A stretch of DNA of 64,000 nucleotides from Leptolyngbya sp. FACHB-261. Its GTDB lineage: Bacteria; Cyanobacteriota; Cyanobacteriia; FACHB-261. Positions 24,065-43,483 of the stretch are shown in pieces; the first letter of the stretch is position 1; each line of letters starts with the position of its first letter. The stretch is taken from the NCBI RefSeq assembly GCF_014696065.1, contig NZ_JACJPL010000027.1, positions 124,001-188,000 of the forward strand. The letters run 5' to 3'. The position numbers and the translations under genes were made by a program. Under the pieces are notes generated by a model that was not told the origin of the DNA, ran no database searches, and worked only from the letters and a program-made list of their open reading frames with translations.

Positions 24065-24100
24065 TCAATTGAATTTTTATTAAATATCTATCTAAACTTT

Positions 24101-25066
24101 CTAAACTTTTTCTAGAGCCTTGTGCAGAGCTAGCCCTGCGGCATACCCAACCTGGAAACCTGCCATAGCCTCCCGGAGGTACTGAGTCAAGACGGCATTT
24201 GATAGACCGTGGGTGAGCTTGAGTCGCAGAATTCTGAGCAAGCAGCGACGCGTAAGCAGCAAGGTTAAGCGAGACATTAAGAGAGCAGTTGGCAGCTGCT
24301 TAGAAGCATGTTTCAAAGCAAAATAGCTCGTATTTTTAGCTAGTTCATACCAGCAGGTTAAATGCTTCTGGTCCTGGCGATTGTGGCTCTTAGCCGGATA
24401 ATGGTCAACAACAGTATCAACATGGCAGACTTCATAACCAGATTGAATAAGGCGTAGGCAGGCGTCGGTTTCTTCCAAAAAATACTCAAAAAACTCATCA
24501 AAGCCGCCAACTTCTAACAGGGCATGCCGTCGATAAGAAGCATTGGCTCCCATCACTCCCTTAAACCAGTAGGGACTGGCCAAATACTGGCTCTGCGTTT
24601 GCTGATCTAGGATGGGTCTAGACTCACTCAAGAGGCTGTTAACACCTTGGCAAAACTGCAAGGGGGCTGTTGGCTTCGTCTTGTCTCTAACCGCTCCAGC
24701 AACACAGCCACATTGCTTTCCTTCAGCCGTGTAGACCCCAAGATGGGCGCTTAACCAATCGGGTGGCGGCACCACGTCATCATCTAAATAAAGAACGATC
24801 TCCTGAGATGCCGCTTTGAGTCCCAGGTTTCTAGCAACGCTAACATTCCTACTGCTAGTAGAAATGATTTTGTCGATGATCGGTTGGAATGCGTCAAGAA
24901 CGGTTACGGTCGTGTCTTGAGAGGGGCCATGAACAACGATCAATTCTTGGAAAGAAGCACGCCACTTCGAGACGGCTTCTAAAGCGCTACGCAGTGATTC
25001 ACACCGGTCGACTGTGCAAATGACGACAGAGACAGGGTAAGGCTCTGAAAGTAAATTGCTGTTCAC
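24101..25066 (-). CDS. GT2 glycosyltransferase
   Basis: A 321-residue inverting GT-A enzyme. The nucleotide-binding start is VSVVICTVDRCESLRSALEA, the metal DxD motif is IVLYLDDDVVPPPDWL (about 92-107), and FDEFFEYFLEETDACLRLIQ (about 194-213) carries the catalytic ED region. This is the Wcm/rhamnosyl-like GT2 layout. The C-terminal 80 residues are helical. Its start overlaps the end of the upstream GT4-GT2 gene by 4 bp (ATGA), so translation is coupled. The donor is not predictable. Confidence 0.88.
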   Translation of the reverse strand: MNSNLLSEPYPVSVVICTVDRCESLRSALEAVSKWRASFQELIVVHGPSQDTTVTVLDAFQPIIDKIISTSSRNVSVARNLGLKAASQEIVLYLDDDVVPPPDWLSAHLGVYTAEGKQCGCVAGAVRDKTKPTAPLQFCQGVNSLLSESRPILDQQTQSQYLASPYWFKGVMGANASYRRHALLEVGGFDEFFEYFLEETDACLRLIQSGYEVCHVDTVVDHYPAKSHNRQDQKHLTCWYELAKNTSYFALKHASKQLPTALLMSRLTLLLTRRCLLRILRLKLTHGLSNAVLTQYLREAMAGFQVGYAAGLALHKALEKV

Positions 25067-27327
25067 TTCGGCCCGGAGCTAGGCAGCAGCGATTTTGTCA
25101 ACTTGGCAATCCGATTGAAAATTAGGGATGAGCCTCCGTCCTTGTAAACCCTTTTCAGCTTGTTCACCAATAGGGTTACGATCTCCATGCCCGTCATATC
25201 AGTACTGCCATACCCTGAATCCAGAGAGGGATTTTCCCACAACCAGGACGCCCCATTCTGGTTCAAGAGATTGTAAATCTCAGTGGCGTATTTTTCATAG
25301 AGCTCAGAATGCAAGGAAGCGATCACATCGTAGAGGTAGAGCAGTTGATCGCGATTGCTATTTCTGAGACGGGAATCTGAGCGAATTCGATAGAAATAGT
25401 GGGGTTCAGGAATGATCACGCCTAGCCAGCCCTGCTTCGATAGATTGATCCAGCATTCGTAATCTTCTAGATTCTCTTCGAGCACTGGGTTCATACCACC
25501 ACAAGCCAGGTAAGCCGCTTTACGAACGACTGTGCACACTCCCAGAGTGTTGTGGCACAGCAAGTAGGGAAATTCGGTATTCCAAGCAACCCAGACCTTC
25601 TGAGAATCGCCAAACTCTTTGATCCAAGACGCGACGAAACCAACGTTAGTGTACTGATCCAAAACCTTGGCAGCTTCTAGGTAGAAACTTGCTGAAACCT
25701 TGTCATCTGAATCGAGGAAAGCTAGGTACTCACCTCTAGCCAGCTCAGCCATTTGATTGCGGGCAATGGCAACTCCCTGATTCTTACTATGAATAACTCG
25801 GAGACCTGGATATTGCTTCTCGACCTCAGCTAAGGTCTGCAAACTACTGGGATCGGTGCTGCCATCGTCTAGAATCAAAACTTCTAGATTGGGATGACTA
25901 GAAGCATATACAGCCTCTAAAGTTTCTCTAATATAGTTGCCGTTGTTATAGAAAGGAATGCAAACAGAAACAATTCCTTTTTCTTCGGGCAAAGTCTGAA
26001 TCTCAGATGGATAAGCAATCTTGCCATGGGGGGGATAATTGACAGAGGGAAACAGAGTTCTCTGGCCGCTCTTTTTAGCCTCAATCATGCGTTGAAAGTG
26101 GCTAATACGCTTCTCCAAGACATTTTTATGGCCAGAGATTCGAGCGATTAGAGCTTGGGATTTCTGTCCCAGAGCTAGATTTTCAGCTTCAGATAAGCTC
26201 AGAATTTGCTTCAACTGATTGCTGAAATCTCCCTGAAGGTTCCAATCGAAGATAAAGCCTGTTTGCTGCCCCTCCGCTTGGAGCATCTCAACATGGCCCA
26301 TGCCTGCCGACGCCAGCACAACTTTGCCTAAAAACATCGACTCTAAGCAGGTGTTGGGGAAGTTCTCCCATAGCGAAGGAATGACAACACACCAAGCCTG
26401 AGCAATTCGGTCAAAGAGTTTTGGCGATTGGATGGGCGGCGAAAGGACTAATCGGCCTTTGTTAATGTATTGCCTATATTTCTGATTTAAGTACTCTTTG
26501 ACGTGACATCCCTGTGAGTAATACCAGGTATCGCCACCAATAGCAGTCAGGTTAAAGTCAAGCCCTTCATCCCACAATTGACGACAGGCTTCGACTAGAG
26601 GAATAATTCCCTTCCGGACCTCCAAACGGCCATAGTAGACAATATCCTTTGGCGTCGGCCTGGACTTGGGCAGTTCATCGCCTTGTAGTAGATTTCTAGG
26701 GGCTGGCAGTGGAATGATCTCAATGTCTAACTGCGGACCTAGCGCATCAGTTGCTTGTTTAGCAATGTAGCGAGTGGGGGCAACCAGACCATCCGCAGCT
26801 AGGGTGCAGAATTTCTCCATTCGGCCCACCCAGTAATTTGAGAGCTGATAGCTCGCCATCTTATTGGCTGGATAAAGCATGTATTGAGAACTGTGCAGGG
26901 TTAGCACAATTGGAATGCCTGCGAGTTCTGAGCATCCTAACAACTTCCGTTGTAGTAAGAAGTATGCTAACCCGCTATATTCCTCACTCTCAATAACGTC
27001 TGGCTTGCCGTGGCTACGAATATATCGAATTACTTCATCAGCCAACTGATAACTCAAAGCCCCCCAGAAGCCCATCACATTGTAGGGAAATGATGAGTGC
27101 TTCTCGGAGAGCGGGGGAGCCCCATCTCTGGCTAAGCGATTAATGTCTTTGGTTGCGATCTTAATGAAGCGCAAGTTGCCTTGCTGCTCTACTTCAGCTT
27201 TGTGGCTACGAGCAAAAACGGTTACCTCATGCCCTGCCTCTGCAAACATCGAGGCAGTATTTCCGACATAGCTAGCAATACCACCAGCGACAGGTGGGCA
27301 TTCACTAGCAATCAGAAAGATTTTCAT
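25063..27327 (-). CDS. Bifunctional GT4-GT2 glycosyltransferase
   Basis: A 754-residue fusion. Residues 1 to about 395 form a GT4 enzyme: MKIFLIASECPPVAGGIASY at the start, PKDIVYYGRLEVRKGIIPLV, and the EX7E region around LWENFPNTCLESMFLG. About 410-700 forms a GT2 enzyme: GIVSVCIPFYNNGNYIRETL, LEVLILDDGSTDPSSLQ, and DxD EYLAFLDSDDKVSASFYLEA. It probably adds two successive sugars, and the two active sites may hand over product. Its mirror-image neighbour (27357-29651) has the order GT2-GT4. It does not carry the SKFWKLR tail found in the four genes upstream. Confidence 0.88.
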   Translation of the reverse strand: MKIFLIASECPPVAGGIASYVGNTASMFAEAGHEVTVFARSHKAEVEQQGNLRFIKIATKDINRLARDGAPPLSEKHSSFPYNVMGFWGALSYQLADEVIRYIRSHGKPDVIESEEYSGLAYFLLQRKLLGCSELAGIPIVLTLHSSQYMLYPANKMASYQLSNYWVGRMEKFCTLAADGLVAPTRYIAKQATDALGPQLDIEIIPLPAPRNLLQGDELPKSRPTPKDIVYYGRLEVRKGIIPLVEACRQLWDEGLDFNLTAIGGDTWYYSQGCHVKEYLNQKYRQYINKGRLVLSPPIQSPKLFDRIAQAWCVVIPSLWENFPNTCLESMFLGKVVLASAGMGHVEMLQAEGQQTGFIFDWNLQGDFSNQLKQILSLSEAENLALGQKSQALIARISGHKNVLEKRISHFQRMIEAKKSGQRTLFPSVNYPPHGKIAYPSEIQTLPEEKGIVSVCIPFYNNGNYIRETLEAVYASSHPNLEVLILDDGSTDPSSLQTLAEVEKQYPGLRVIHSKNQGVAIARNQMAELARGEYLAFLDSDDKVSASFYLEAAKVLDQYTNVGFVASWIKEFGDSQKVWVAWNTEFPYLLCHNTLGVCTVVRKAAYLACGGMNPVLEENLEDYECWINLSKQGWLGVIIPEPHYFYRIRSDSRLRNSNRDQLLYLYDVIASLHSELYEKYATEIYNLLNQNGASWLWENPSLDSGYGSTDMTGMEIVTLLVNKLKRVYKDGGSSLIFNRIAKLTKSLLPSSGPK

Positions 27328-27356: not shown

Positions 27357-29651
27357 TCAGTCTTCGTCAGCCAGACCTAGTTTACGCTTAAGATCGATCC
27401 AAGCCGTGCGAATTTTCCAGAATTTGGAAGATTCCATAGCCAGCTTTCGGTCTTCAACCAGTTTCTTTTCCCATCTCAAATCCGAGAGCTCACGGTAGAG
27501 TTCTTGTTCAAGCTGCTGGCGTCGTTGCTCACTCTCGGAACATTCTCGCTCCTTGTTGAGATACTCCAGCCCCAAAGTCAGGATCTCTTCAGCGAAGTGA
27601 GGATCAATCGCGGGCTGAGGCTGACTTCTACGTTGCTCTAGGGCCTCAGTAAAGATTGCCTCCATTCGGTCTCGCATGATCTCTAGGGAAAACGCCTGCG
27701 CAACTCGTTGGCGAGCGGCTGTACCAATAGCTTTTCGCAGTTCGGGGCTCTGAATCAGCTCTACCAAAACCTCCACATAGCTGTGAGCCTCTTGGGCATC
27801 ACTACCTCCTTTAGCAATTAGATAACCAGTACCCGGTATGACCAGTTCTCTCTGCCCCCCGACATCAGAAGCAACAACGGGTAGTGACATCGCCATGGCC
27901 TCATAGATGGACAGGGAGACTCCCTCATATTCAGAAGGCAGCAGCAGAATGTCCGCCGCTGAGTAAAATCCTTGCATTTGTTCAGGGCTGGCTGGTGGTA
28001 AAAGGTGAAAAGTTGATTCTAAACCCAGAGCCTGAATTTGGGTTTGATAGTCAACCATGAAACGCCCTGTTCCTAGAGAAACAAGGACTACCGGCTGAGA
28101 ACGTTGCACTAATTCTTTGATAATTTCAACCAAGAACAGTGGCCGTTTTTGAGGCTCTATGCGCGCCGGAAACAGTAAGACAATTGCATCCTCTGCAATC
28201 TTGAGTGATTGTCTAATTTCACGGCGTTGCTCTGGGTCGAAAGTCCACTGATTGACATCAATGTTCGTGTAGCAAACCTGCGTCTTTTTTTTAGTTTCAG
28301 GATTCAGCGTCCAATAGAACTGAGCCAAGTCTTGGGAGGAAACAACTTGAGCATCCAAAAACTGGCTGGATTGGCAGGAAATACGTGGAAAACCACTGCC
28401 CCGCCAGCCCATATCCTTGGTGTGAATATAGTCAACAAACGCAACTTGAGGAAACTCTGAGCGGAGCAGAGGCAGAAGGTAATAGGCTGCGTAGGCGTTA
28501 GAAATCAATACCAAATCGATGCGACGAGATTCAATTAGATATCGGGTCGCAGCTAGCCAGTATTCATCTGACAGAATATTGGGTAGATGAAAAATATCAG
28601 GCGTCAGAGCATAGAAATATCTATACCAGGGATGGTCAGACTTCATCGTTGTAACGATGGTGATGTCATATCCCTGCTCAGATAATAAAGTCAGTAAATC
28701 TAAGTTAAATCGATCAGCACCCCCGACTGTTAACCAGGGGAAAAAGCAGAGAAGACGCCGAGATCCAGGGCTGCGAGCAATCTGGTTTTCAATCTTCAGT
28801 TCAACTTGTCTCAGACTCCACTCAAAGCAAGGACGCCGTACCAAATACGTCTCTTCTTCCACCAGATTTTGAGCAAACAAAGGCTGGTAGCGTGAACGTA
28901 CTAGTTCAGCAGTTTGTTTGTCCTCAGGCGTATTTTTTCTCGAAGTTTCTAGAAGACCCGACTGGGTGCGACGATAACAGTCTAAGTATTCTGGGATAGT
29001 CCAACCTTTTTGACCGCTGGTAAATGCCCTAAGCCATCGTTCCCAGTCTTCATAGCATCTCAGTTGCTCGTCGTATCCTCCCAACAGTTCAAAGTCCGTT
29101 TTTCTGTAGAGCAGCCTCCCTGTAACCCAATTTTGCTCGATAAATCGAATCGGTTTATCAAAGCCAAACTCCCACCAATATTCCTGAGCTTGAAAACCAA
29201 CCGAATAGGAATTAACCAGAGAAAAATCAGGATGGCTTTCGAGAAAAAGAACACATTTTTCGATGTAGGTCAGGGCAATTAAATCATCCAAATCCATGAA
29301 AAAGAGGTGCTTACCGCTGGCCTTAGAAATCGCAGTATTTCTACCAGCTGAAGGCCCTCGGTTACTCTCATGGTGATAGATCTTGATCTTGGCCGAGCGC
29401 TCGGGTAAGAGCTTGAGACATTCGATAGACTCTGGATCTGTAGAGCAGTCATCAACAATGATCCATTCAAAATTTTGAAAGGTTTGATTGATGACACACT
29501 GATAGGCTTCCTCAAGGTATTGGTGCTGGTTGAAGAACGAGGAGATAATCGAAACGAAGGGATTCTCAGACTCAACGGGATTGTAGAAATTGAGCTGTTT
29601 AGTCTGTAGGAGAGAATGGACAAACTCCCCAACGCTGGGATAAGGCTTCAT
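27357..29651 (-). CDS. Bifunctional GT2-GT4 glycosyltransferase with SKFWKLR-type tail
   Basis: A fusion of about 764 residues. The N-terminal GT2 (about 35-250) has FVSIISSFFNQHQYLEEAYQ and the DxD HLFFMDLDDLIALTYIEKC. The GT4 domain (about 300-670) has LLCFFPWLTVGGADRFNLDL, PARIEPQKRPLFLVEII and the EX7E stretch LLPSEYEGVSLSIYEAMAMS. A coiled coil (about 700-745) follows, then AMESSKFWKIRTAWIDLKRK at the C-terminus. That tail is shared with the next three genes upstream. I start at the ATG at 29651; a TTG at 29678 is possible. Neither has a good ribosome-binding site. Confidence 0.85.
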   Translation of the reverse strand: MKPYPSVGEFVHSLLQTKQLNFYNPVESENPFVSIISSFFNQHQYLEEAYQCVINQTFQNFEWIIVDDCSTDPESIECLKLLPERSAKIKIYHHESNRGPSAGRNTAISKASGKHLFFMDLDDLIALTYIEKCVLFLESHPDFSLVNSYSVGFQAQEYWWEFGFDKPIRFIEQNWVTGRLLYRKTDFELLGGYDEQLRCYEDWERWLRAFTSGQKGWTIPEYLDCYRRTQSGLLETSRKNTPEDKQTAELVRSRYQPLFAQNLVEEETYLVRRPCFEWSLRQVELKIENQIARSPGSRRLLCFFPWLTVGGADRFNLDLLTLLSEQGYDITIVTTMKSDHPWYRYFYALTPDIFHLPNILSDEYWLAATRYLIESRRIDLVLISNAYAAYYLLPLLRSEFPQVAFVDYIHTKDMGWRGSGFPRISCQSSQFLDAQVVSSQDLAQFYWTLNPETKKKTQVCYTNIDVNQWTFDPEQRREIRQSLKIAEDAIVLLFPARIEPQKRPLFLVEIIKELVQRSQPVVLVSLGTGRFMVDYQTQIQALGLESTFHLLPPASPEQMQGFYSAADILLLPSEYEGVSLSIYEAMAMSLPVVASDVGGQRELVIPGTGYLIAKGGSDAQEAHSYVEVLVELIQSPELRKAIGTAARQRVAQAFSLEIMRDRMEAIFTEALEQRRSQPQPAIDPHFAEEILTLGLEYLNKERECSESEQRRQQLEQELYRELSDLRWEKKLVEDRKLAMESSKFWKIRTAWIDLKRKLGLADED

Positions 29652-29709
29652 ACCAACACTCAAAACACTGACACTCAAAATACTGAGGGCAACTGAGCGA
29701 GAAGGTTAG

Positions 29710-30657
29710 TCAATCTCCCTGAATGCCAACTGCATGTCTCAGTTTAAACCAGGCCGCTCTCAGCTTCCAAAACTTGCTGCTCTCCATCGCCTCAAGCCTG
29801 GACTTGGTGGTTGACAAAGACTCTTCTAATCGCTTCATCTGCACCCGCAAGCGGTCACACTGCTGCGCATACTCATCCATGCTGTAAGTCAGCTGAGACG
29901 GGGTTGCTCTAGCTGGGGCATCATCAGGAGGTTGATAACCCAGTTCTCGACAGAGTTCAAAGGTCTCTTCCGACAGCTCTGACCAAAACATCGGTGGTCG
30001 CCCACTCTTAGCTTTACCGCGCATTGACCGTGAAGCGTTATACTCCCGATTCAGCTCGTCTACAGATAGAGGAATCTCTCTTAGCCCTGTGAACTCTATA
30101 AATCTCTGCCAAACTTCAACCGGATTATTCTGAATTTCTTCTTGATGAATCGCAAGGTAAGGCGCGCCAGTATCCCGCATAGCTAAGGCATCGCGATGTG
30201 CATCAATATAGTGACGCTCCGACGATTCTATGGTGCTAAACATTGGTACAGTACCCAGGTACTCCACAATTGATGGCAGTGCCGTGAGCGGGCTTCTAAT
30301 TAAATGAATATAGCGGGCATCTGGAAAAACTTTGCGCATAAAATCCACTGGCAAATAACCAATGGCTTTCGCAAACCAGCGGGGTTGGTCAGATGGAAAA
30401 AGTTCATAGAGAAATGCTCTGACAGCAGCAGCAGCTTTACGATCATGCTCCTGGCTCTGCTCGTTACAATCTCTGATGATATGGCTTTCAACCCACCAAC
30501 TCTCGTACAGTTCCCGTTGTAGGGTCGATAGGATACTGGTTTCAATGACACACTGAACATCAGGATGCTTGGCCAGGGTTTCGAGCATCCAGGAAGAACC
30601 TGAACGCCCAGGTCCAATCAAGAGAATAGGCGCTGTTACATTGTTGGGATTAGGCAT
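29710..30657 (-). CDS. Sulfotransferase-family protein with SKFWKLR-type tail
   Basis: A 315-residue member of the PAPS-dependent sulfotransferase superfamily. The 5'-phosphosulfate loop is ILLIGPGRSGSSWMLETLAK (about 11-30), and the 3'-phosphate loop is ARYIHLIRSPLTALPSIVEY (about 130-150). The body is followed by a short coiled coil (QCDRLRVQMKRLEESLSTTK) and the tail AMESSKFWKLRAAWFKLRHA. In this context it probably sulfates a sugar of the exported polysaccharide. The family also contains stearate and tyrosyl enzymes, so the acceptor is inferred from context only. Confidence 0.82.
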   Translation of the reverse strand: MPNPNNVTAPILLIGPGRSGSSWMLETLAKHPDVQCVIETSILSTLQRELYESWWVESHIIRDCNEQSQEHDRKAAAAVRAFLYELFPSDQPRWFAKAIGYLPVDFMRKVFPDARYIHLIRSPLTALPSIVEYLGTVPMFSTIESSERHYIDAHRDALAMRDTGAPYLAIHQEEIQNNPVEVWQRFIEFTGLREIPLSVDELNREYNASRSMRGKAKSGRPPMFWSELSEETFELCRELGYQPPDDAPARATPSQLTYSMDEYAQQCDRLRVQMKRLEESLSTTKSRLEAMESSKFWKLRAAWFKLRHAVGIQGD

Positions 30658-30741
30658 CGGCGAGCTTCGACTTGGACTAGAGCAACGTCAGTAAAACCTT
30701 AGCAAAAAATGTGCAGCGCCCAACTTGAGCTGCCTAGGTTG

Positions 30742-32730
30742 CTAGCTCCTAACTCGCTTGAGGCGAAGCCAGGTTTCCCGCAGCTTCCAAAACTTACTGC
30801 TTTGCAGCTCAGCAACAGTCGCCTGAGAATTCTGCAATTCTTCCTGGCAACGCTGTAACTCCTGTTGCGAGGATCGAAATTTCTGCCAAAAGCGCTTTGC
30901 TTCTTCCTTTTGTTTCTGCAATTCCTGCTCGCGCTCCAAAAGCTCAGCTTCAGCTTTTAGAAGTGAGTGCCAGCGGGCAAAGCTAATCCTAAAGGGAAAG
31001 CCCTGAGAACTCATGATCTTCTCAATTCTACGGATGGCTTTTTGCCAAATTTGGCCTTCAGGGGTTGAATCTTCGCTGACAGGTTGGTCATGAGATTGGG
31101 TGACATCATAACTGAAGACGAGACGAGTCTTTGTAGTCAAATACAACAAGAGGAAGAACTCTTCAGCAACCTCAAGTTTGGGATCAATAGCAATGTCACT
31201 GTCTTGAAGCAGCGAAGATTTAGCAATAAAGCTACCTAAACCTAAAAGCTTGTCTGATTCTATTGCATCTACCAAATCAGCCTGCTCAAAGAATCGAAGT
31301 GAAGTGACATCCGCGCCATTCTGTTCATCAAAATCCTTTTGAGAGCTATTACAGTCATCAGTATTTACCTCCTGAGCCAGAACAGAACCAGAGTAGGCTA
31401 GGCCAAAGTTCTCATAGCGCTCTAGAAGCTTGACTAAAGTATGAATATGGTTTCTATGCAGCAGGCTGCTACTTAGAACACCAAAGTATTCTGAGGTAAC
31501 TGCGCTCAATCCTGCCCACAAGGTACTACTACCGTATCGGCACTGCACGCTATCCAAAGCAATGATTTTTATCTCGAATCTGGTTTTATACAGCTCTAGT
31601 AAAGCATCAAGCTCTGAATCTGCATCTGATTTCACTAAAACCAGTGAAAAATCTTGATAACTTTGATTTGCCAAACTGTCGAGGTGTTGTTTAAATTCTG
31701 AAGCCGAGTGGCTATTGGCTCTGAGAATAAGCTGGACATGCTTGGGCTGTTTAGTTACAGCAGCTTGGACACCCAGAGATGGTGCGAAACCCTTTTCAAG
31801 CACTATTTCTTGGTGATAATCTTTGAAAGATCGAAGTAGATTCTCTAGGGAAAAACGCTCAACAAAAATGCGATGTGCTTCCCTAGACATCTCTAGAGCT
31901 GTTTCGGGATTGTTCTTAATCCAGGCAATGTGACTAGAGATCTCTTCTACTTGCTCAGATAGGCTGAGATTTTGCGACAGATATAGAACACAATCACCAA
32001 AATTCTCTCGAATAAAGGCGTGTTCTCCGCAGATCGCTAGAGCACCAGACGCAGCAATTTCAAAGATACGCATCGTTGGCGCTTCAGACTCAGTATGCAC
32101 CTCAGTGTGCAAGCATAAAGCCACTCCAGCCCGGTTTAACTTGTCTAGCAGGCTAACCCCATCGAAGGGAATCGAGCCTCGATAGGAGGATTCTAGATAC
32201 TGCCAGCCTTCTTGCCTGCCATAAAAATCTACATAGTCTTTTTTATCCAGCTCTAAGAACAAGTCTTTAAATCTCACCGTGTCCCAATTGGAACCGATAT
32301 AAACTAGCCTGGGCTCCGCGAGTTCAGGTTCTCGATATTGAGTTTCATTACTGCTAGGGTAAAAGGGAAGAGTACCAACTTTGTTGGGTAAGAAATACAA
32401 AGTATCTTGCACCCAGGTTTTGACCACACTTGAACCGCAAAGATAGCCGTCGTAACTTAGGATATTTTTGATCAGTTCGTTAGACTTGTTTGACCTCTCA
32501 AAATGAGCAATCGGATTCCACATGCAGCCATAAGTTGGGTAACCAGTAACTTTTGGCACATAGTGGTGAAGCACAAGAACAGCATCCGGCTGAAGCTCAT
32601 TGATCTCGCTTCTCCCTGCAACCTCAACTGCCTTCCAACCCAGACTTTTAGCCGCTAAGCCCAAGCGACGACACAGCTCTTTTTCAGCAAAAAGGCCCCC
32701 GTAGAACGGATTATGAATTGCAATTCGCAT
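30742..32730 (-). CDS. CgeB-like glycosyltransferase with GT2-like second domain and SKFWKLR-type tail
   Basis: A 662-residue protein. About 1-325 resembles CgeB/spore-protein-like GT-B enzymes: MRIAIHNPFYGGLFAEKELC at the start, PRLVYIGSNWDTVRFKDLFL, and TESEAPTMRIFEIAASGALA, which fills the donor-binding EX7E position. About 330-560 follows the GT2 pattern (VQLILRANSHSASEFKQHLD) but shows LSSSLLHRNHIH where DxD is expected, so this domain may be inactive. A charged coiled coil (about 590-640) and the tail LQSSKFWKLRETWLRLK close the protein. It is the third of the four tail-bearing genes. Confidence 0.75.
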   Translation of the reverse strand: MRIAIHNPFYGGLFAEKELCRRLGLAAKSLGWKAVEVAGRSEINELQPDAVLVLHHYVPKVTGYPTYGCMWNPIAHFERSNKSNELIKNILSYDGYLCGSSVVKTWVQDTLYFLPNKVGTLPFYPSSNETQYREPELAEPRLVYIGSNWDTVRFKDLFLELDKKDYVDFYGRQEGWQYLESSYRGSIPFDGVSLLDKLNRAGVALCLHTEVHTESEAPTMRIFEIAASGALAICGEHAFIRENFGDCVLYLSQNLSLSEQVEEISSHIAWIKNNPETALEMSREAHRIFVERFSLENLLRSFKDYHQEIVLEKGFAPSLGVQAAVTKQPKHVQLILRANSHSASEFKQHLDSLANQSYQDFSLVLVKSDADSELDALLELYKTRFEIKIIALDSVQCRYGSSTLWAGLSAVTSEYFGVLSSSLLHRNHIHTLVKLLERYENFGLAYSGSVLAQEVNTDDCNSSQKDFDEQNGADVTSLRFFEQADLVDAIESDKLLGLGSFIAKSSLLQDSDIAIDPKLEVAEEFFLLLYLTTKTRLVFSYDVTQSHDQPVSEDSTPEGQIWQKAIRRIEKIMSSQGFPFRISFARWHSLLKAEAELLEREQELQKQKEEAKRFWQKFRSSQQELQRCQEELQNSQATVAELQSSKFWKLRETWLRLKRVRS

Positions 32731-32832
32731 TGATGCCTTCTAGGTAATGCACCACTAAGAGCTGATCGGGATCTTGAAATTCAGTGGCTCAAAGGTTGTC
32801 GGAATTAGGCCTCTAGTTAGAACTCTGCTACG

Positions 32833-33978
32833 CTAGTCATCAATTTTCAGGCCCAAAGACTTTTTCACTTTAAACCACTGGGTGCGCAACTTCCAGAACT
32901 TGCTCGTCTTCATTGCGGCCACTTCTGCTTGGGTTTGGTGAACTGCGGCCTGTGAGCGGTCTAGTTCTCTCTGAGTTTGCTTAAGCTGATTTTGCAGTTG
33001 TTCAAAACCACTGAATTCTAGTTCCAGGGAGCGCTTCAGGTATTCCGGATAGATAGTCCTCGCTCCTTCTGTATTCAAATCTCTAACGTCAATTTTATAG
33101 AGAATGTGATCGCCGCTAATGCCCTTATAACGAGTGATTTTAGAGGAATCGACGCCAATCAAGCCAAGGAAATCTGTAATTAGACCATCACTAATCTGGA
33201 AGCTATGGTAGATAAATCTATTCTCCTCTTTACTCCAACCTGTGTGCAAGTTCATAGTGTGACTAGCTGTATCAATCACACCCGTGTCAAATATGACCAT
33301 CTCCTTGGCCAAGCTTATAATTCGAAGCAGCCCATAGAAGGGAAACAACAGGTGGTTATGAACTTCTGAGAGGAAAACAATGTCGTGTTTTGGGATACTG
33401 AGATCAAACAGAATGTCTGAATTTACAAAAGTAACATTCTGATGGCCAAGCACTTCTTTCGACCAGACTGAGCTTTCGTGCTGACGTTTAAGCACTTCTA
33501 CCCCAGTCACCTGTTTTGCACCTAATTCAGCGAAGCGAAAGCTAAAGAAACCATTGGAACTGCCAATCTCTAGTACCGACTTACCCTGCACTTCTGGAAA
33601 AGTCGGCTTAATGTATAACCACTTAGGCCACGGACGAAGAATAGATGCTTCGCGGCTAGTTAACCTTTTACCTAAAGTATTTAACCCACCTTCATCAATA
33701 TAAGCCCAATCGTGATTAGAGGTTGAAGTGATGTTGTGCGCAGGATAATCAATCCGCTGAAACCAATTGCCCCCAAAGTCTTGTATCCCTTTCGCTACAT
33801 TACCCTTGAGTGCTGATTGCACCTCTGGAGAGCCATCATTCTGGAGCATCTTACGTAGCTCAGCAACCATATTCTCAAGCTGTTGCTCTGAGCAAAGTGG
33901 AAAGCTGTTAGCCCCAAGGTTCTGTTGCCCTGCCCCGTGACGAACTGTGTAGTTACCAAAATCAATTGTACTCTCCAT
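32833..33978 (-). CDS. Class I SAM methyltransferase with SKFWKLR-type tail
   Basis: A 381-residue protein. The methyltransferase fold spans about 120-290: motif I VLEIGSSNGFFSFRFAELGA, GVEVLKRQHESSVWSKEVLG, then HDIVFLSEVHNHLLFPFYGL. The layout is like the tRNA-mo5U34/Methyltransf_9-type enzymes that are also found in sugar clusters. A helical C-terminal part (LKQTQRELDRSQAAVHQTQA) leads to AMKTSKFWKLRTQWFKVKKS. From context it probably methylates a glycan residue. It is the leftward-transcribed head of the tail-bearing block, directly after a GT4 gene. Confidence 0.82.
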   Translation of the reverse strand: MESTIDFGNYTVRHGAGQQNLGANSFPLCSEQQLENMVAELRKMLQNDGSPEVQSALKGNVAKGIQDFGGNWFQRIDYPAHNITSTSNHDWAYIDEGGLNTLGKRLTSREASILRPWPKWLYIKPTFPEVQGKSVLEIGSSNGFFSFRFAELGAKQVTGVEVLKRQHESSVWSKEVLGHQNVTFVNSDILFDLSIPKHDIVFLSEVHNHLLFPFYGLLRIISLAKEMVIFDTGVIDTASHTMNLHTGWSKEENRFIYHSFQISDGLITDFLGLIGVDSSKITRYKGISGDHILYKIDVRDLNTEGARTIYPEYLKRSLELEFSGFEQLQNQLKQTQRELDRSQAAVHQTQAEVAAMKTSKFWKLRTQWFKVKKSLGLKIDD

Positions 33979-34016: not shown

Positions 34017-35291
34017 CTAAACAAGCTGTCCACTTGTGGCCAATACCGAGTTCTCTATGTAGTTCATCCAATTCTCGCCTTGACGTTTAAGCGTGAATTC
34101 TGCTTCTACAATCGTTCTGCCTGCTTCTCCAAAATCATGGCATTTAGTTGGATTAGCCATTAAGAATTTGATTTCTCTCAATAAACCTTTTGTGTTTGTC
34201 TCATTAGACAGGCGAGCATTGACATTGTGTCTTGCAATCTCTGATACACCTCCAACATTAAAGGCCGCAATAGGTAGTGAACAGGCAGCCGCTTCACAAA
34301 AAGTTTGGCCGAAGGCTTCTTCTAGGGAAGTTCCAACGAAGATATCAGCAGCACTAAAAACCAGAGGCATCTTCCGATAATCTCTTAAAAAGCCGGTTCC
34401 ATGCACCTCTTTGAGCTGTTGAGATTCAGAACCAAACACCAAAAAGTAAGCCTCCTTACCCAACTCCGCGACAACTTCCTTGAACATATGTCCCCCTTTG
34501 CGATAGTCCTCCATATTGACTGCCCCACCAAGAATGACAAAGCTATCTTGGGGGATGCCTAGAAGGCGACGAGCTAGGGCTTTGTCAACTTTCTTAAAAA
34601 GTTGCTCGTCTACTCCACAATAGATATGGTCAACATTGCAAAGCCCTTTCAGAGCTTTTTGAGCCATGCTTTGAGTCCAGCAGCTATTGGCGACTAGCGG
34701 AATGCCTTCAGAACCACAGAAAATTTCTCGGCGTAAAGCCCATTCGTCAAATATTTCGTTTGGAGGTAGAGTTGGATACTGATCCCAGGTTGGACAACTA
34801 GAGTTACAACCCTTCTCATAGAGAGAGCAATTACCAGTATAGGCACAACGTCCCGTAAACAAGTAACAGTCATGCATGAAGGCAATGACCATTATGTCTA
34901 ATTTCTTAAGAGCAGGTAGTAACTTAAGCGACCATTTAGACCCGTGAAGATTACCTACGATGATGATATCCGGAGATTTACGTTTCACCTCCAAAACAAT
35001 GTTATCTATGATTCTGGATTGGCTTAGGTTTTGCCTGGCATCTAAATACGACAGTTGAGTCAGACCTAACCAATGACCTGTCGCATCATCTGGAACAAAA
35101 GGGATATCCCCTTCAATGGGTCCCTGACACCAACAAAGGGCTTCCACTTCCTGCCCCATCAACAGAAAAGACTGAATTTGACGTAAAAAGGCAATTCCAG
35201 CCCCATATTGAAATCCTAGATCGTTAAGAAAAAGAACGCGCAATCTTTCTCTTTTTACCAGTTTATTTCTAAGTCTACGATAATTAACCAT
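34017..35291 (-). CDS. GT4 glycosyltransferase
   Basis: A 424-residue GT-B enzyme. The N-terminus is RLRVLFLNDLGFQYGAGIAF. A cysteine-rich middle stretch (CYLFTGRCAYTGNCSLYEKG, then CNSSCPTWDQYP) resembles the metal-site insertion seen in some cyanobacterial GT4 enzymes. The donor domain has DSFVILGGAVNMEDYRKGGH and the EX7E motif TSLEEAFGQTFCEAAACSLP. There is no SKFWKLR tail. It is 38 bp upstream of the methyltransferase gene and 45 bp downstream of the GT39-like gene, so it lies in the same operon. Confidence 0.85.
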   Translation of the reverse strand: MVNYRRLRNKLVKRERLRVLFLNDLGFQYGAGIAFLRQIQSFLLMGQEVEALCWCQGPIEGDIPFVPDDATGHWLGLTQLSYLDARQNLSQSRIIDNIVLEVKRKSPDIIIVGNLHGSKWSLKLLPALKKLDIMVIAFMHDCYLFTGRCAYTGNCSLYEKGCNSSCPTWDQYPTLPPNEIFDEWALRREIFCGSEGIPLVANSCWTQSMAQKALKGLCNVDHIYCGVDEQLFKKVDKALARRLLGIPQDSFVILGGAVNMEDYRKGGHMFKEVVAELGKEAYFLVFGSESQQLKEVHGTGFLRDYRKMPLVFSAADIFVGTSLEEAFGQTFCEAAACSLPIAAFNVGGVSEIARHNVNARLSNETNTKGLLREIKFLMANPTKCHDFGEAGRTIVEAEFTLKRQGENWMNYIENSVLATSGQLV

Positions 35292-35336: not shown

Positions 35337-37385
35337 TCACTTACTCTCTTTTCTCATATAAACCGCAATGGCAGGGGAAGAGGAAACTACTGTATTTGTC
35401 CAATTCCCTGTAATCTGTAGTAGTTTATTCACATCTTCAGAGTTTGTGACTGCTATAACACCACACATCTCTGTGTCTGAAAACTCTGGTTCAGCTCTCT
35501 CCGATTCATTTCGAACTTCTACGTGTTTGAACTTGAATGAGTCGATTTTCTGCTTTAGAAGAACCCAAAGAGGATATTCCCAGATCGCAGAGCCACGAAC
35601 GAGGAAACCCCAGGATTTACATCGAGTTCTAGTAGTAATAAGATTAACAACTTCGTGGTAAGGCACCTTTAGTTCCTTGCGAGAACCGCTAAAGTAGATG
35701 TCTTGCCGTGCCAAAGACAAAATGGACTGAGATTGTTCAAAACTAATCCGCCCAGTGAAACTGGCAGGCAGAGTAAGTATAGGATGTCTCATGGGAGTTA
35801 GGGCATAGAAAATCGCGACCCCAGCTATCAAAATAGCTAAACCCTCCCAAACTTTGTTCTGTATGTAGGTACTAATATGGTGAGCGATTAATGGTGAGAA
35901 TAGGATAAATTCTGGAAGCAGCAAACGATTCCCCCATATCTGCCACTTTAGCAAGAAGCAAAATAAGGCGATCCCTAAAAAGTTCACAACCGAGAGTTGA
36001 AATAGAGCCATATCTCCTCGTCGGGATCCCTTTGATGCTTTGCTACTGAGTCTAAACAGCAAAGCTATTACGGATAGCATAATTAAAATAGAATGAATAG
36101 GATTAGCAACGGTGTCTTCATGAGGAACGAGCAGAGTAAGTGGAGTTCCTGCTGGTCCTTGAAAGAACTCAGTTGCGAAAGAAAGGCTTAAATCGGAATC
36201 CGACAGGGACACTCCTAACAGATTCTTGTGAATGTTAACCACCCACTCCCTAAAGCCAGGGACCGTTAAGTTTAAAGCCGTATTTTTTAAAACATTAGAA
36301 ATAAATTGTGGCAACCCAAACTCTGTACTCCTCGTGCCTGTATCTGTGCCAAGGAAAGAACCAAGAATTTGATAATTTCGCCAGTAGCTTGGGATAGAGA
36401 GGCTAATCCCCCCCACTAAAACAACAAGAAGCGTTACAGCACGTGTGCGTAAAAACTCAAACAGATAACGGTTTCTCAAACCGAGAGCATCATTTAATAT
36501 TCGGAACGCAAGAAGTAAAAACAGCGGTGCCCCAAAAATAATTGCTGTAGGTTTAGTGACTAAGCTTAGACCAAGTGAAGATGCCAGCCAGAATACATCT
36601 GACCCTGAGAAATTATTAGTAGAAAAGATAAAATAGGTAAAACAGGCTAGCCAGAAGGATACAACTAAATCTGTCTGCGTAGTAGTGGACTGCATGATTC
36701 CCATGGGGATTGTAGCACAAACCAGCATGCTAATGAGAGATGCTCGTTTGCCAGCAATAATATCAGTGATCAGAGAAACAGCTATAATACTGCCTAAGAA
36801 AGCAAACCACTGCACACAATTAGCGAAACGATCACTACCTGAGAGTATTTGAAACTGGGCAACAATATAGCTAGCCCCTGGAGGAAATGAAATTTGGCGT
36901 AAATCGTAGGTCGGGTAGTGAGCAAGGCTACGATTTTGGATCCAGTGCATCACTCTGGGCATGTGGTAATCCATTGAGTCCCAGTTATTTGGTGGTGCAA
37001 CTAGAGCTATAAGCAAACTAACACTTAAAATTAAAACAATTGGAGCAATGACAATAAGATCAGAAAGTCTCGGGAGTCTTTCTAGGTAAAAACCAGCCCA
37101 AGGCCAAAAGAAGTTAGCGCTTCTATACGGCTGAAAACCAACATGGTTCAGGCGGAGCAGAACAACAAAGCTTATGATTGAGATAATTGCCCAGAATAGA
37201 GTGACATGAACATAATCCAGTGATCTTCCTAAGCTTAAGCTTTCAGTTGAGATGGAAATCAGTAAACCCAAAAAAACAGAAGCTTTTACAAAGGCAAGTC
37301 TAAACAACTTTTGCTCGGGTTGCGCTTGCCAGTAAAATATTGCGAGGATTAATAGAAATGAAGCAAAGAGTAAAAGGATTGCCAT
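35337..37385 (-). CDS. Membrane GT39-like glycosyltransferase
   Basis: A 682-residue polytopic protein with roughly a dozen membrane helices. After the third helix, PPNNWDSMDYHMPRVMHWIQ matches the external loop of cyanobacterial GT39/PMT-like proteins, where an acidic residue is catalytic. FPPGASYIVAQFQILSGSDR follows. The C-terminal 120 residues are soluble. It would act on a lipid-linked sugar at the outer face of the membrane, for example adding a side branch to the polysaccharide. It has little similarity to the two GT39 proteins at the left end of the window beyond the class. Only 7 bp separate it from the upstream GT2 gene. Confidence 0.75.
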   Translation of the reverse strand: MAILLLFASFLLILAIFYWQAQPEQKLFRLAFVKASVFLGLLISISTESLSLGRSLDYVHVTLFWAIISIISFVVLLRLNHVGFQPYRSANFFWPWAGFYLERLPRLSDLIVIAPIVLILSVSLLIALVAPPNNWDSMDYHMPRVMHWIQNRSLAHYPTYDLRQISFPPGASYIVAQFQILSGSDRFANCVQWFAFLGSIIAVSLITDIIAGKRASLISMLVCATIPMGIMQSTTTQTDLVVSFWLACFTYFIFSTNNFSGSDVFWLASSLGLSLVTKPTAIIFGAPLFLLLAFRILNDALGLRNRYLFEFLRTRAVTLLVVLVGGISLSIPSYWRNYQILGSFLGTDTGTRSTEFGLPQFISNVLKNTALNLTVPGFREWVVNIHKNLLGVSLSDSDLSLSFATEFFQGPAGTPLTLLVPHEDTVANPIHSILIMLSVIALLFRLSSKASKGSRRGDMALFQLSVVNFLGIALFCFLLKWQIWGNRLLLPEFILFSPLIAHHISTYIQNKVWEGLAILIAGVAIFYALTPMRHPILTLPASFTGRISFEQSQSILSLARQDIYFSGSRKELKVPYHEVVNLITTRTRCKSWGFLVRGSAIWEYPLWVLLKQKIDSFKFKHVEVRNESERAEPEFSDTEMCGVIAVTNSEDVNKLLQITGNWTNTVVSSSPAIAVYMRKESK

Positions 37386-37392
37386 AAAGCAG

Positions 37393-38163
37393 CTATTCTG
37401 TCCGGCCGCGTACTAACACACCCTCACTACCTAGCTCATCGCTTCTGAGCTCTTGCTTCTCAAACGGCCTCACCGTAGAAAATAGATTATATTTGACGAT
37501 GCAAATAATAGCCCAAATGCCATCACGCCAACCTATCTTCTTGCCTTCCTTGTAAGTCCGACCATAGTAAGATATGCCAACCTCATAAATCCGGCATCCT
37601 GCTTTCGCGACCTTGGCAGTAATTTCAGGTTCGAATCCAAAACGATTCTCCTGTATCTCTATGCTCTGAATTACCTCACGTCGGAATGCCTTATAGCAGG
37701 TTTCCATATCTGTGAGGTTGATATTGGTAAACATGTTAGAGAGCATCGTCAGAAATCGATTTCCTACCATATGCCAATAGTAGACAACTCTATGAGGATG
37801 ACTCCCTACAAAACGTGAACCAAAAACCACATCAGCTTTGTCGTCCAGAATTGGTTTGATTATTTCTGGGTACTCTTGTGGGTCATACTCCAAGTCAGCA
37901 TCTTGAACAATTACAACATCACCTGTGGCTGCCCCAAAGCCGCTGCGCAGAGCCGCCCCTTTGCCACAATTCTTGCGATGGTAGATTATTTGATCAACTT
38001 GGGCTTCTAGCTTTGACTTTAATATCTCTCGTGTGCCGTCAGTTGAGCAATCATCAACGATGATGATTTCTAAATTCTTAACAGGAGAGGCCTTCACTGC
38101 TTCAACAACTCGAAAAATTGTCCCAAGCTCGTTGAAACAAGGAATAACAACAGAAAGTTTCAT
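37393..38163 (-). CDS. GT2, polyprenyl-phosphate sugar transferase type
   Basis: A 256-residue GT-A enzyme of the dolichol-phosphate mannosyltransferase type. It has [60 protein letters not shown] and the metal motif [20 protein letters not shown] (about 85-104). It has no C-terminal membrane helices, so it is the soluble type. It plausibly makes the polyprenyl-phosphate sugar donor used by the adjacent GT39-like membrane enzyme: the pair is abutting (7-bp gap), and such pairs are functionally linked elsewhere. Confidence 0.88.
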
Positions 38164-41902: not shown

Positions 41903-42655
41903 TTACAGCTTGGGCGACCTGCTTTTCACTTCACTGAGATAGCGGTCTACCGCCTCGTTCGTTTCACCCGAAAACCGAATCTTACCTCTCTCCAACCAAA
42001 TGGCCCGTTCACAAGATTCCCTTATGAATCTCAAGTCGTGAGAGACCACTAGAACGGTTGCGTCAGCATTCCAGAACTGTTGGATTCGCTGCTTACACTT
42101 ATTCCTGAAACTCTCATCCCCCACCGACAGAATTTCATCGAGAATTAGAATGTTTGGCTGCACATCCGTGGCAATCGCGAAGCCCAAACGGGCAACCATA
42201 CCGGAGGATAGCGATTTGACTGGTGACAGAGCGTAATCTTCTAAATCTGCAAATTCCAAGATGGATTTGGCTCTCTGCTTCATCTCTGCTTGAGAGAAGC
42301 CCAGCATGACTCCATAGAGGACGATATTGTCCATTGCTGAAATCCCTGGGTCAAAACCTGCGCCCAGTTCGATCAGGGGGGCAATACTCCCTCGAACTCT
42401 CACTGAACCGCTAGTTGGCTTGAGGATGCCGCAAATGACTTTCAAGAGCGTTGATTTACCCGCTCCGTTCGCACCAATGATGCCAAGTTTTTCGCCAGTT
42501 CCTACCACTAGATCAATTTGGTCGAGCACCAATCTTCTAGCCGGTTTTGTATATTTGCCCTCCAGAAATGACAGGACGGTTTTCTTCAGGTCATAAGAAA
42601 ACTCTTCCTGTGTGCGCCGCCACAGCGAGACTTGGTCTAGGCGAACGATTTCCAT
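41903..42655 (-). CDS. ABC transporter ATPase, polysaccharide export (Wzt type)
   Basis: A 250-residue ATPase of the ABC-2 polysaccharide/teichoic-acid export family. It has Walker A IGANGAGKSTLLKVICG (about 58-74), signature SLSSGMVARLGFAIATD (about 150-166), Walker B NILILDEILSVGD, and switch VLVVSHDLRF. It ends shortly after the ATPase fold, so it lacks the C-terminal carbohydrate-binding domain seen in longer Wzt proteins. Together with the permease it flips undecaprenyl-linked glycan across the inner membrane. Its start abuts the permease stop. Confidence 0.92.
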   Translation of the reverse strand: MEIVRLDQVSLWRRTQEEFSYDLKKTVLSFLEGKYTKPARRLVLDQIDLVVGTGEKLGIIGANGAGKSTLLKVICGILKPTSGSVRVRGSIAPLIELGAGFDPGISAMDNIVLYGVMLGFSQAEMKQRAKSILEFADLEDYALSPVKSLSSGMVARLGFAIATDVQPNILILDEILSVGDESFRNKCKQRIQQFWNADATVLVVSHDLRFIRESCERAIWLERGKIRFSGETNEAVDRYLSEVKSRSPKL

Positions 42656-43483
42656 CTACAGCAGGTCCATGAATTGAGGGCGCCACCAGCGAAAGCAAAC
42701 CCACCCTAATCCTAGGACGACCACCCCACTGAGAAGTGCCTTGGACGCGATCAGGAAATCTGGCGATGTTCCCGACAAAGAGATCTGGCGCAAACTTTCG
42801 ATGATCGCAGAGAGCGGGTTCAAGCCCAAAAAACGTTTTACTTGCTCCGGGACAATGGCAGCGGGATAAAAAACGGGGCTACTAATCCACAAAGCGAACA
42901 CGACCATCTCATAGAAGTAAGACAAATCTCTAAAGAATACGTATAAGGCGCTGACTAAAAAGCCAATACCTAAAGAGACTAAAACTAAAGCGCTACAGGG
43001 CAGCAGCAGAGCCAGGACATTGACCAGGCTTTCTGAGTTAATGAACGTGACAATCGCGAGCAACGGCAGAACGCCAACGGAGAGTTGGAATACGTTGGCT
43101 GCAACCATTGACACGGGAAAAACACTAACAGGCAAACGGATCTTATTTAGGACAGACCCATTACTCACTACGCTACCCAAAGCTTGAGAGGTAGAAGCTG
43201 AGAAGAAGTTAATGACAACCAGCCCTGTGAAGGCAGCTAAGACATAGTTAGCAATTGAGTTGCCATAGTAAGAAGCAAAGGCAGCGCCAAAGATAGCCGT
43301 ATAGACCCCCGTCATGATCAGAGGGTTTAAGAGCGACCAGTAGACACCTAAAAACGAGCCTCGATAGCGAATTTTCAGATTGCGTACAGCCAGTACGTAA
43401 AGCAGCTCCCAATAGCGGTGAACCTGCGGCCAACCCGGCAGAATCTTCAGAGACAGGGTCATAAAAGCTTCAAGGCGCTCCAC
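42656..43483 (-). CDS. ABC transporter permease, polysaccharide export (Wzm type)
   Basis: A 275-residue ABC-2 permease with six hydrophobic helices. The cytoplasmic N-terminal amphipathic part contains RNLKIRYRGSFLGVYWSLLN, the classic signature of polysaccharide-export permeases. SSPVFYPAAIVPEQVKRFLG and NPLSAIIESLRQISLSG follow in the C-terminal half. It is the first gene of the 20-kb leftward cluster and pairs with the abutting ATPase. An internal ATG at about 43465 (MTLSLKILPGWPQ) would also serve as a start. The main promoter of the cluster should lie upstream, between 43484 and 44176. Confidence 0.92.
   Translation of the reverse strand: MERLEAFMTLSLKILPGWPQVHRYWELLYVLAVRNLKIRYRGSFLGVYWSLLNPLIMTGVYTAIFGAAFASYYGNSIANYVLAAFTGLVVINFFSASTSQALGSVVSNGSVLNKIRLPVSVFPVSMVAANVFQLSVGVLPLLAIVTFINSESLVNVLALLLPCSALVLVSLGIGFLVSALYVFFRDLSYFYEMVVFALWISSPVFYPAAIVPEQVKRFLGLNPLSAIIESLRQISLSGTSPDFLIASKALLSGVVVLGLGWVCFRWWRPQFMDLL

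What the first reader, a model, noticed from the sequence alone, without database searches (positions are those of the whole stretch)
27357..33978. A shared C-terminal SKFWKLR tail on four consecutive enzymes of unrelated families
Four adjacent genes (GT2-GT4 fusion, sulfotransferase, CgeB-like glycosyltransferase, class I methyltransferase) have nothing in common catalytically, yet all end in a charged coiled coil followed by the same element. The elements read AMESSKFWKIRTAWIDLKRK, AMESSKFWKLRAAWFKLRHA, LQSSKFWKLRETWLRLK and AMKTSKFWKLRTQWFKVKKS. The shared pattern is roughly [MQ]-x-[ST]-S-K-F-W-K-[LI]-R-x-x-W-x-x-[LV][KR]. The other enzymes of the cluster lack it. A small aromatic and basic amphipathic helix after a coiled coil fits a docking or membrane-tethering tag that gathers polysaccharide-tailoring enzymes. 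I know of no named family for it. The docking role is my inference; the motif itself is plain in the sequence.
Basis: partly seen in the sequence, partly recalled or inferred. Interest (0 to 1): 0.85.

Follow-up and report, generated by a model that had tools for sequence, protein, structure and literature searches.

The report
Shared end-of-coil tail on sugar-polymer enzymes
Four neighbouring cyanobacterial sugar-polymer enzymes of unrelated types end in the same coiled-coil stalk and short tail, which appears to be the cyanobacterial version of an unnamed element that caps the chain-length ruler WbdD in E. coli, so it probably mounts different enzymes at one assembly site on the membrane.

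Summary
Four adjacent genes (GT2-GT4 fusion, sulfotransferase, CgeB-like GT, methyltransferase) end in coiled coil + SKFWK[LI]RxxW. A profile built only from other genomes finds exactly these four in the window (E 4.5e-18 to 7.6e-12; next 0.75). Their codons differ, so they are not fresh DNA copies. No Pfam, NCBIfam or PDB entry covers the tail.

It is not a local oddity. It occurs in 36 of 146 sampled genomes of the phylum, on glycosyl-, sulfo- and methyltransferases; 21 of the 36 have a Wzm exporter gene nearby. Elsewhere in bacteria the same place, in the same heptad register, on homologous enzymes, holds SxSWR[LIV]TxPLR. Both E. coli WbdD rulers (O9 and O8) carry that form where the coiled-coil ruler meets the membrane- and polymerase-binding region. 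The motif can be followed by a stop, a WbdD-type C-terminal region, or further GT modules.

Best reading: a conserved cap at the membrane-proximal end of a coiled-coil stalk, here mounting four enzymes on one assembly/export site. WbdD kinship is well supported through the SxSWR form; membrane or partner docking is inferred. The tail is helical and basic, but not measurably amphipathic beyond composition. New variant of a known kind.

The parts
32836..32904 (-). tail of the class I methyltransferase: SKFWKLRTQWFKVKKSLGLKIDD
   Evidence: external-tail HMM E 4.5e-18
32905..33030 (-). coiled coil (about 42 aa of heptads in register with the tail) of the methyltransferase
   Evidence: heptad count
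32833..33978 (-). class I SAM methyltransferase (381 aa) carrying coil + tail
   Evidence: Methyltransf_25 E 3.1e-6
30745..30798 (-). tail of the CgeB-like glycosyltransferase: SKFWKLRETWLRLKRVRS
   Evidence: E 7.6e-12
30799..30966 (-). coiled coil (about 56 aa of heptads in register) of the CgeB-like protein
30742..32730 (-). CgeB-like / Glyco_trans_1_2 protein with weak GT2-like second half (662 aa), coil + tail
   Evidence: Glyco_trans_1_2 E 7e-8
29713..29778 (-). tail of the sulfotransferase: SKFWKLRAAWFKLRHAVGIQGD
   Evidence: E 1.6e-14; AF2 with 36-row alignment: coil helix, break at Ser-Ser, then 15-residue helix, mean pLDDT 90.8
29779..29883 (-). coiled coil (about 35 aa of heptads in register) of the sulfotransferase
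29710..30657 (-). sulfotransferase (315 aa) carrying coil + tail
   Evidence: Sulfotransfer_3 E 8.6e-19
27360..27428 (-). tail of the GT2-GT4 fusion: SKFWKIRTAWIDLKRKLGLADED
   Evidence: E 1.4e-13
27429..27512 (-). coiled coil (about 28 aa of heptads in register) of the GT2-GT4 fusion
27357..29678 (-). GT2-GT4 fusion glycosyltransferase (773 aa) carrying coil + tail
   Evidence: Glycos_transf_2 E 2.2e-26, Glycos_transf_1 E 2.1e-29
41903..42655 (-). Wzt-like ABC exporter ATPase (250 aa, short form) of the same cluster; no tail
   Evidence: ABC_tran E 9.9e-23; related genes in 20 other tail loci
42656..43483 (-). Wzm-like ABC exporter permease of the same cluster; no tail
   Evidence: relatives at 60-78% identity in about 30 genomes; homologue in 20 of 40 tail loci

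Best explanation
The tail is a cap element at the membrane-proximal end of a coiled-coil stalk, the cyanobacterial form of an element that bacteria place at the end of such coils in polysaccharide-assembly enzymes and that E. coli WbdD carries at the end of its ruler. The coil most likely oligomerises the enzyme (WbdD is a trimer). The helix breaks at the invariant Ser, and a short basic Trp/Phe-rich helix follows that most likely binds the cytoplasmic membrane surface and/or a shared partner of the polymerase-exporter machinery. In this cluster four enzymes (methyltransferase, CgeB-like GT, sulfotransferase, GT2-GT4) use the same cap, so their active sites would be held at one site, each at a distance set by its coil, to act on the lipid-linked chain before export through Wzm/Wzt. 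Shown: shared coil + motif, fixed heptad register, counterpart on homologous enzymes elsewhere, presence in two WbdD proteins, frequent exporter neighbourhood. Inferred: oligomerisation, what the cap binds, co-localisation, any ruler effect.
For: Motif real and independently recovered. 66 tails in 36 of 146 genomes, on GT2, GT4, CgeB-like, sulfotransferase, FkbM and other methyltransferases. Wzm within about 15 kb of a tail in 21 of 36 genomes; Wzm and Wzt-like genes are the only untailed families recurring in about half of 41 loci. SxSWR[LIV]TAPLR occurs in the same position after coiled coils in many phyla. Hydrophobic positions upstream (-20,-17,-13,-10,-6,-3) coincide in both sets: r 0.94 at shift 0, at most 0.51 at any other shift. 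hhalign of the two profiles aligns in register, E 4.9e-6, score 22.6 against a maximum of 13.1 for column-shuffled and 9.1 for coil-only controls. Homologous enzymes (30-48% identity over 220-500 aa) carry one or the other form. E. coli WbdD of HS (O9; 708 aa) has IEKIHRSRSWRMT at S592 and the IAI1 (O8) WbdD has ADLHNSRSWRITQPLR at S308, in the same register; SxSWR-profile E 2.4e-4 and 1.7e-9. Published: WbdD is a trimer with a coiled-coil ruler and a C-terminal membrane/WbdA-binding region (PMC3482155, PMC5082667, PMC11231755, PMC6286764). AF2: coil helix, Ser break, second helix, mean pLDDT 90.8. Net charge about +5.
Against: The direct score of WbdD against the cyanobacterial profile is not significant (E 17 for O9): the link runs through the SxSWR form, and the tail columns alone do not reach significance. 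The tail is not more amphipathic than shuffles of itself. 15 of 36 genomes have no Wzm nearby. The cyanobacterial tails lack the roughly 110-aa region to which membrane and WbdA binding map in WbdD. The near-invariance of SKFW.LR..W is more than a plain membrane anchor needs. No binding, localisation or oligomer data exist for this element.
Confidence: 0.6

Rival explanations
1. Plain membrane anchor: the tail is only a basic, aromatic interfacial helix that holds each enzyme at the anionic inner face of the membrane, with no protein partner.
For: Net charge about +5.4 in 19 residues, two conserved Trp plus Phe and Leu; WbdD and its relatives are membrane-associated through the region that follows the coil (PMC3447403, PMC11231755); no strong cluster-specific sequence code within loci.
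Against: Hydrophobic moment not above composition-preserving shuffles (mean z 0.58). S, K, F, W, R and W are 94-100% conserved across unrelated enzymes, far more than lipid binding needs.
Confidence: 0.3
2. Specific docking peptide: the tail is recognised by a conserved protein of the assembly/export machinery (for example Wzm/Wzt or the priming or polymerising enzymes), with lineage-specific forms because the receptor differs between phyla.
For: Near-invariant identities within the phylum and a different near-invariant form elsewhere; SKFWKLR not found in 100 Pseudomonadota, and SxSWRTAPLR absent at convincing score from 146 genomes of this phylum; homologous enzymes switch form with the phylum; Wzm/Wzt frequent neighbours.
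Against: 15 of 36 genomes lack Wzm near the tail; no other universal neighbour was found. A Melainabacteria bin holds both forms, though it may be chimeric. Tails of one cluster are only marginally more alike than tails of different clusters (p 0.05-0.08).
Confidence: 0.35
3. Oligomer cap: the tail is the end of the coiled coil itself, a Trp/Phe-rich clasp that closes homo- or hetero-oligomers, so that sister enzymes co-assemble through their coils.
For: Coil register is locked to the motif; hydrophobic positions 2, 5, 9, 12, 16 continue a 3-4 spacing with a one-residue slip; WbdD trimerises through its coil (PMC3482155).
Against: AF2 breaks the helix at the Ser and starts a separate helix (monomer only). 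In WbdD the helix at the start of the coil, far from the motif, already gives the trimer (PMC3482155).
Confidence: 0.2
4. No function of its own: a mobile coiled-coil cassette spread among neighbouring genes by recombination.
For: Appears on many unrelated enzymes and in tandem (L063, two copies 50 aa apart).
Against: Codons differ at most shared residues and the motif columns stay near-invariant over distant genomes: purifying selection.
Confidence: 0.04

Closest known systems
WbdD of E. coli O9/O9a and O8 (coiled-coil molecular ruler and chain terminator of ABC-exported O antigen)
   Same: Catalytic domain, heptad coil, then S-x-x-W-[KR]-[LIM]-[TR] in the same heptad register (S592 in HS, S308 in IAI1); methyltransferase as one of the enzymes; cluster with Wzm/Wzt.
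   Different: WbdD has about 110 aa after the motif (membrane and WbdA binding region); the cyanobacterial tails stop 18-25 aa after the Ser. Here four enzymes, including a sulfotransferase and GTs, carry it. Motif letters are SKFWKLRxxWF, not SxSWRxTxPLR.
Unnamed SxSWR[LIV]TAPLR C-terminal element of bacterial glycosyltransferases/methyltransferases (no Pfam match found; identified here by pattern scan)
   Same: Same position after the coil, same register, homologous catalytic domains.
   Different: Different letters from position 6 on (TAPLR against R..WF); essentially absent from the sampled cyanobacteria.
Multi-module terminator-polymerase proteins with a coil between modules (K. pneumoniae O12 WbbB, O7 ORF6)
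   Same: Coil between a terminator module and GT modules; the internal tails found here sit at such junctions.
   Different: Their sequences were not at hand, so whether they hold the motif was not tested (PMC11231755 read only for architecture).
KpsC-, LpxB- or PglH-type amphipathic membrane helices of GTs
   Same: Short basic/aromatic helices placing GTs at the membrane (general knowledge).
   Different: Those are parts of single families; this tail is shared by enzymes of several folds and is not measurably amphipathic beyond composition.

Membership tests
WbdD-type coiled-coil terminators | N-terminal terminating enzyme domain (methyltransferase and/or kinase) | tested here: met
   Met for the methyltransferase at 32833-33978 (Methyltransf_25 E 3.1e-6); the other three are GTs and a sulfotransferase
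WbdD-type coiled-coil terminators | coiled coil after the catalytic domain | tested here: met
   28-56 aa of in-register heptads in the four proteins; AF2 helix. Shorter than the WbdD coil region (residues 460 to about 591)
WbdD-type coiled-coil terminators | S-x-x-W-basic-aliphatic cap in fixed heptad register at the end of the coil | tested here: met
   Same register in SKFWKLR tails, SxSWR tails and both WbdD proteins; a direct profile hit between the SKFWKLR model and WbdD is not significant
WbdD-type coiled-coil terminators | about 110-aa C-terminal region binding membrane and polymerase | tested here: not met
   Only 18-25 aa follow the Ser in the window; present in SxSWR proteins with 100-135 aa after the motif
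WbdD-type coiled-coil terminators | ABC exporter Wzm/Wzt in the same cluster | tested here: met
   41903-43483
WbdD-type coiled-coil terminators | coil length sets polysaccharide length | not testable with these tools
   needs coil insertion/deletion mutants
Named Pfam, NCBIfam or PDB family for the tail | match of the tail to a model or solved chain | tested here: not met
Amphipathic membrane-binding helix | high hydrophobic moment as a helix | tested here: inconclusive
   mean moment 0.356 (Fauchere-Pliska), mean z 0.58 against shuffles; strong positive charge
SxSWRxTxPLR coil-end element | same position and register on homologous enzymes | tested here: met
SxSWRxTxPLR coil-end element | T-x-P-L-R letters after the Trp | tested here: not met
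   cyanobacterial form reads R-x-x-W-F

The most novel reading that the evidence does not exclude
Bacteria share an undescribed assembly tag: a coil-end cap, written in phylum-specific dialects (SKFWKLRxxWF in cyanobacteria, SxSWRxTxPLR elsewhere), that is recognised by a conserved component of the polysaccharide assembly/export site and is bolted onto any enzyme that must act there, so WbdD is one special case of a general recruitment code.
Probability: 0.3. Interest if true: 0.85.

Novelty: new variant of a known kind. Interest (0 to 1): 0.62.

Why it matters
It would turn a loose architectural remark (terminators have coiled coils) into a sequence-defined element that can be searched for, deleted and swapped. 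That would help predict which enzymes of a polysaccharide cluster work together at the membrane, in cyanobacteria where such pathways are poorly assigned and in bacteria generally. It also gives WbdD, the best studied ruler, a conserved landmark at the junction of coil and membrane region, for which no annotation or text mention was found here.

Tried and rejected
Text search for the motif letters: no paper. Pfam, NCBIfam and PDB searches with the tail: nothing relevant; Pfam on SxSWR tails: only spurious coiled-coil matches. tblastn in plasmids: one record with the cyanobacterial tail (Nostoc sp. C052, a glycosyltransferase), and none with my recalled SxSWR query. Viral contigs: 46 pattern matches, none confirmed. 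A cluster-specific docking code (tails of one cluster more alike than others): weak, p 0.05-0.08. Recent DNA duplication: rejected by codon differences. A free C-terminus being needed: unlikely, as 14 cyanobacterial tails are internal in multi-module proteins. Wzx-type alternatives in loci without Wzm: the transmembrane-rich neighbours tested gave DsbD, MFS, Mem_trans, TPR or no family. Single-sequence AF2 of the whole sulfotransferase was poor (pLDDT 43.5) but showed the same helix-break-helix at the C-terminus. A laid copy of the whole genome was not available.
Full report
WHAT WAS CHECKED. The four tails are in the sequence as described. On the minus strand, in transcription order, the cluster reads Wzm (42656-43483), Wzt (41903-42655), FkbM-coil-GT2 (38220-41561), GT2 (37393-38163), a 682-aa membrane protein (35337-37385), GT4 (34017-35291), methyltransferase, CgeB-like protein, sulfotransferase, GT2-GT4 fusion, then GT4-GT2, GT2 and GT4 (22991-27327). 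The methyltransferase, CgeB-like protein, sulfotransferase and GT2-GT4 fusion end in SKFWK[LI]RxxW within 18-25 aa of the stop. No other protein of the cluster has it. A profile from 61 tails of other genomes recovers exactly these four from all six frames (E 4.5e-18 to 7.6e-12; next 0.75), and a reversed-tail decoy finds none. Shared residues are mostly written with different codons, so the resemblance is kept at the protein level.

DISTRIBUTION. A profile of the four tails finds matches in 36 of 146 genomes of the phylum, all in the window's class, which makes up about 64 of the sample, often two to four on one contig (the class size is my count from the listing). The window's own genome has five: these four and a GT2 protein on another contig. 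Of 66 tails read in 41 loci, 51 lie within 32 aa of the stop and 15 are followed by more protein; one protein carries two copies 50 aa apart. Carriers match GT2 (25 of 65), GT4 (about 18), Sulfotransfer_3 (13), several methyltransferase families and FkbM. Conservation is extreme at S0 (94%), K1, W3 (100%), F2 (98%), R6 (97%) and W9 (95%).

NEIGHBOURHOOD. Among 41 loci the only untailed gene families found in about half are Wzm and Wzt-like ATPases (21 loci each; the Wzt cluster also takes in another ABC ATPase of the window). A Wzm-family gene lies within about 15 kb of a tail in 21 of the 36 genomes, and 35 of 36 have one somewhere (my tally). In the remaining loci no Wzx/Wzy was recognised among the transmembrane-rich neighbours tested. 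The association is strong but not obligatory.

THE COUNTERPART OUTSIDE CYANOBACTERIA. I recalled, as a lead only, a SxSWRLTAPLR tail in proteobacterial glycosyltransferases and tested it. The relation to SKFWKLR rests on four results. (a) Upstream heptad positions coincide: hydrophobicity correlates r 0.94 at shift 0 and at most 0.51 at other shifts, and these columns were not part of the DNA pattern. (b) hhalign aligns the profiles in register, E 4.9e-6, score 22.6, against maxima of 13.1 (all columns shuffled), 20.0 (only tail columns shuffled) and 9.1 (coil-only windows). (c) Homologous catalytic domains, 30-48% identical over 220-500 aa, carry SKFWKLR in cyanobacteria and SxSWRxTAPLR elsewhere. 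(d) The distributions are complementary: SxSWR has no convincing hit in 146 genomes of this phylum, SKFWKLR none in 100 Pseudomonadota, while about a tenth of those carry the SxSWR form. A Melainabacteria bin holds both SxSWRLTAPLR and SSGFWKMRNRW, each on a GT2 protein. Caution: the tail columns alone give no significant profile match.

THE CHARACTERISED RELATIVE. E. coli HS, taken as an O9 strain (its exporter is annotated as O9 family), encodes a 708-aa WbdD; it reads ...NENQQLRQEIEKIHRSRSWRMTKGYRYLG... with the motif Ser at residue 592. E. coli IAI1, with an O8-family exporter, has a 425-aa methyltransferase at the wbdD position with ...HQQMADLHNSRSWRITQPLRWL..., Ser at 308. Both keep the register (-3, -6, -10, -17, -20 hydrophobic, -13 Asn). 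The SxSWR profile scores them at E 1.7e-9 (O8) and 2.4e-4 (O9) for a 4500-protein search; in the 50-kb HS region WbdD is the only hit. In WbdD the motif therefore marks the junction between the coiled-coil ruler and the C-terminal region that binds membrane and WbdA (PMC3482155, PMC3447403, PMC11231755, PMC5082667, PMC6286764). The soluble construct WbdD 1-600 (PMC3447403) ends eight residues after the Ser; this fits, but does not prove, a role of the following helix in membrane binding. The SxSWR proteins fall into three groups by what follows: a stop within about 40 aa, a roughly 110-aa WbdD-like region, or further GT modules. The cyanobacterial proteins use the first and third arrangement.

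STRUCTURE AND PHYSICS. AF2 on the sulfotransferase coil + tail with a 36-row alignment gives helix 8-47, a break at the Ser-Ser, and a second helix 50-64 (KFWKLRAAWFKLRHA), mean pLDDT 90.8. This is a monomer prediction; oligomer and partner are not modelled. The tail carries about +5.4 net charge, but its hydrophobic moment is not above that of shuffled copies (mean z 0.58); the averaged profile peaks near 108 degrees, closer to a coiled-coil spacing than to a classical surface helix. So the wording 'amphipathic helix' should be used with care.

MECHANISM. The most economical reading is that the element is the membrane-proximal cap of a coiled-coil stalk. In WbdD the stalk keeps the terminator about 200 Angstrom from the membrane and the polymerase (PMC5082667). 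In the present cluster the stalks are shorter (about 28, 35, 42 and 56 aa of in-register heptads), so the enzymes would sit closer in, and all four share the cap. I infer that the cap docks on the membrane, a common partner, or both, and so co-localises the enzymes at the polymer before export. Near-invariance favours a specific partner; charge and aromatics favour the membrane; marginal within-cluster similarity argues against a private code for each cluster. Internal tails in multi-module proteins show that a free C-terminus is not required.

VERDICT. Real, conserved, unnamed and widespread; related through the SxSWR form to an element in WbdD that I found no description of. New variant of a known kind rather than a categorically new system.

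Noticed in passing
window 38220-41561: The FkbM-coil-GT2 protein of the same cluster has a long coil but no SKFWKLR; its coil ends in LIKVLLKKLRVYDFAYSNYGVFVPVYNALFRDRW, which by eye resembles the WbdD stretch LHKLGLYQPAYRLYRR. A regular-expression search found no second copy in the 41 loci.
   Followed up: partly
window 41903-42655: The Wzt of this cluster is short (250 aa), without room for a carbohydrate-binding C-terminal domain, whereas the related ATPases in tail loci have a median of 452 aa.
   Followed up: no
L063:7544-10672: A GT4 protein with two SKFWKLR tails in tandem, 50 aa apart, at its C-terminus. L085 (Falsiroseomonas) likewise has two SxSWRVTAPLR copies.
   Followed up: no
L074:6365-7513: Coil + SKFWKLR at the N-terminal side of a methyltransferase, so the order of tail and enzyme is reversed there, or a fusion or frameshift is involved.
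   Followed up: no
L145 and L198 (same Melainabacteria bin, G151): One genome bin holds both dialects: SxSWRLTAPLR and SSGFWKMRNRW, each on a GT2 protein; a chimeric bin is possible.
   Followed up: partly
L208:17967-20093 and L210:8457-9734: The WbdD C-terminal region after the motif resembles the roughly 110-aa region of SxSWR proteins in other phyla (O8: E 2.1e-4; O9: 7 bits, not significant): possibly an unnamed small domain.
   Followed up: partly
window 9340-13506: A 1388-aa protein with a TIR-like start, an NB-ARC-like middle and many repeats of about 38 aa (ALAQAGQFRQAQEVAQGIED...), reminiscent of STAND-type defence or signalling proteins.
   Followed up: no
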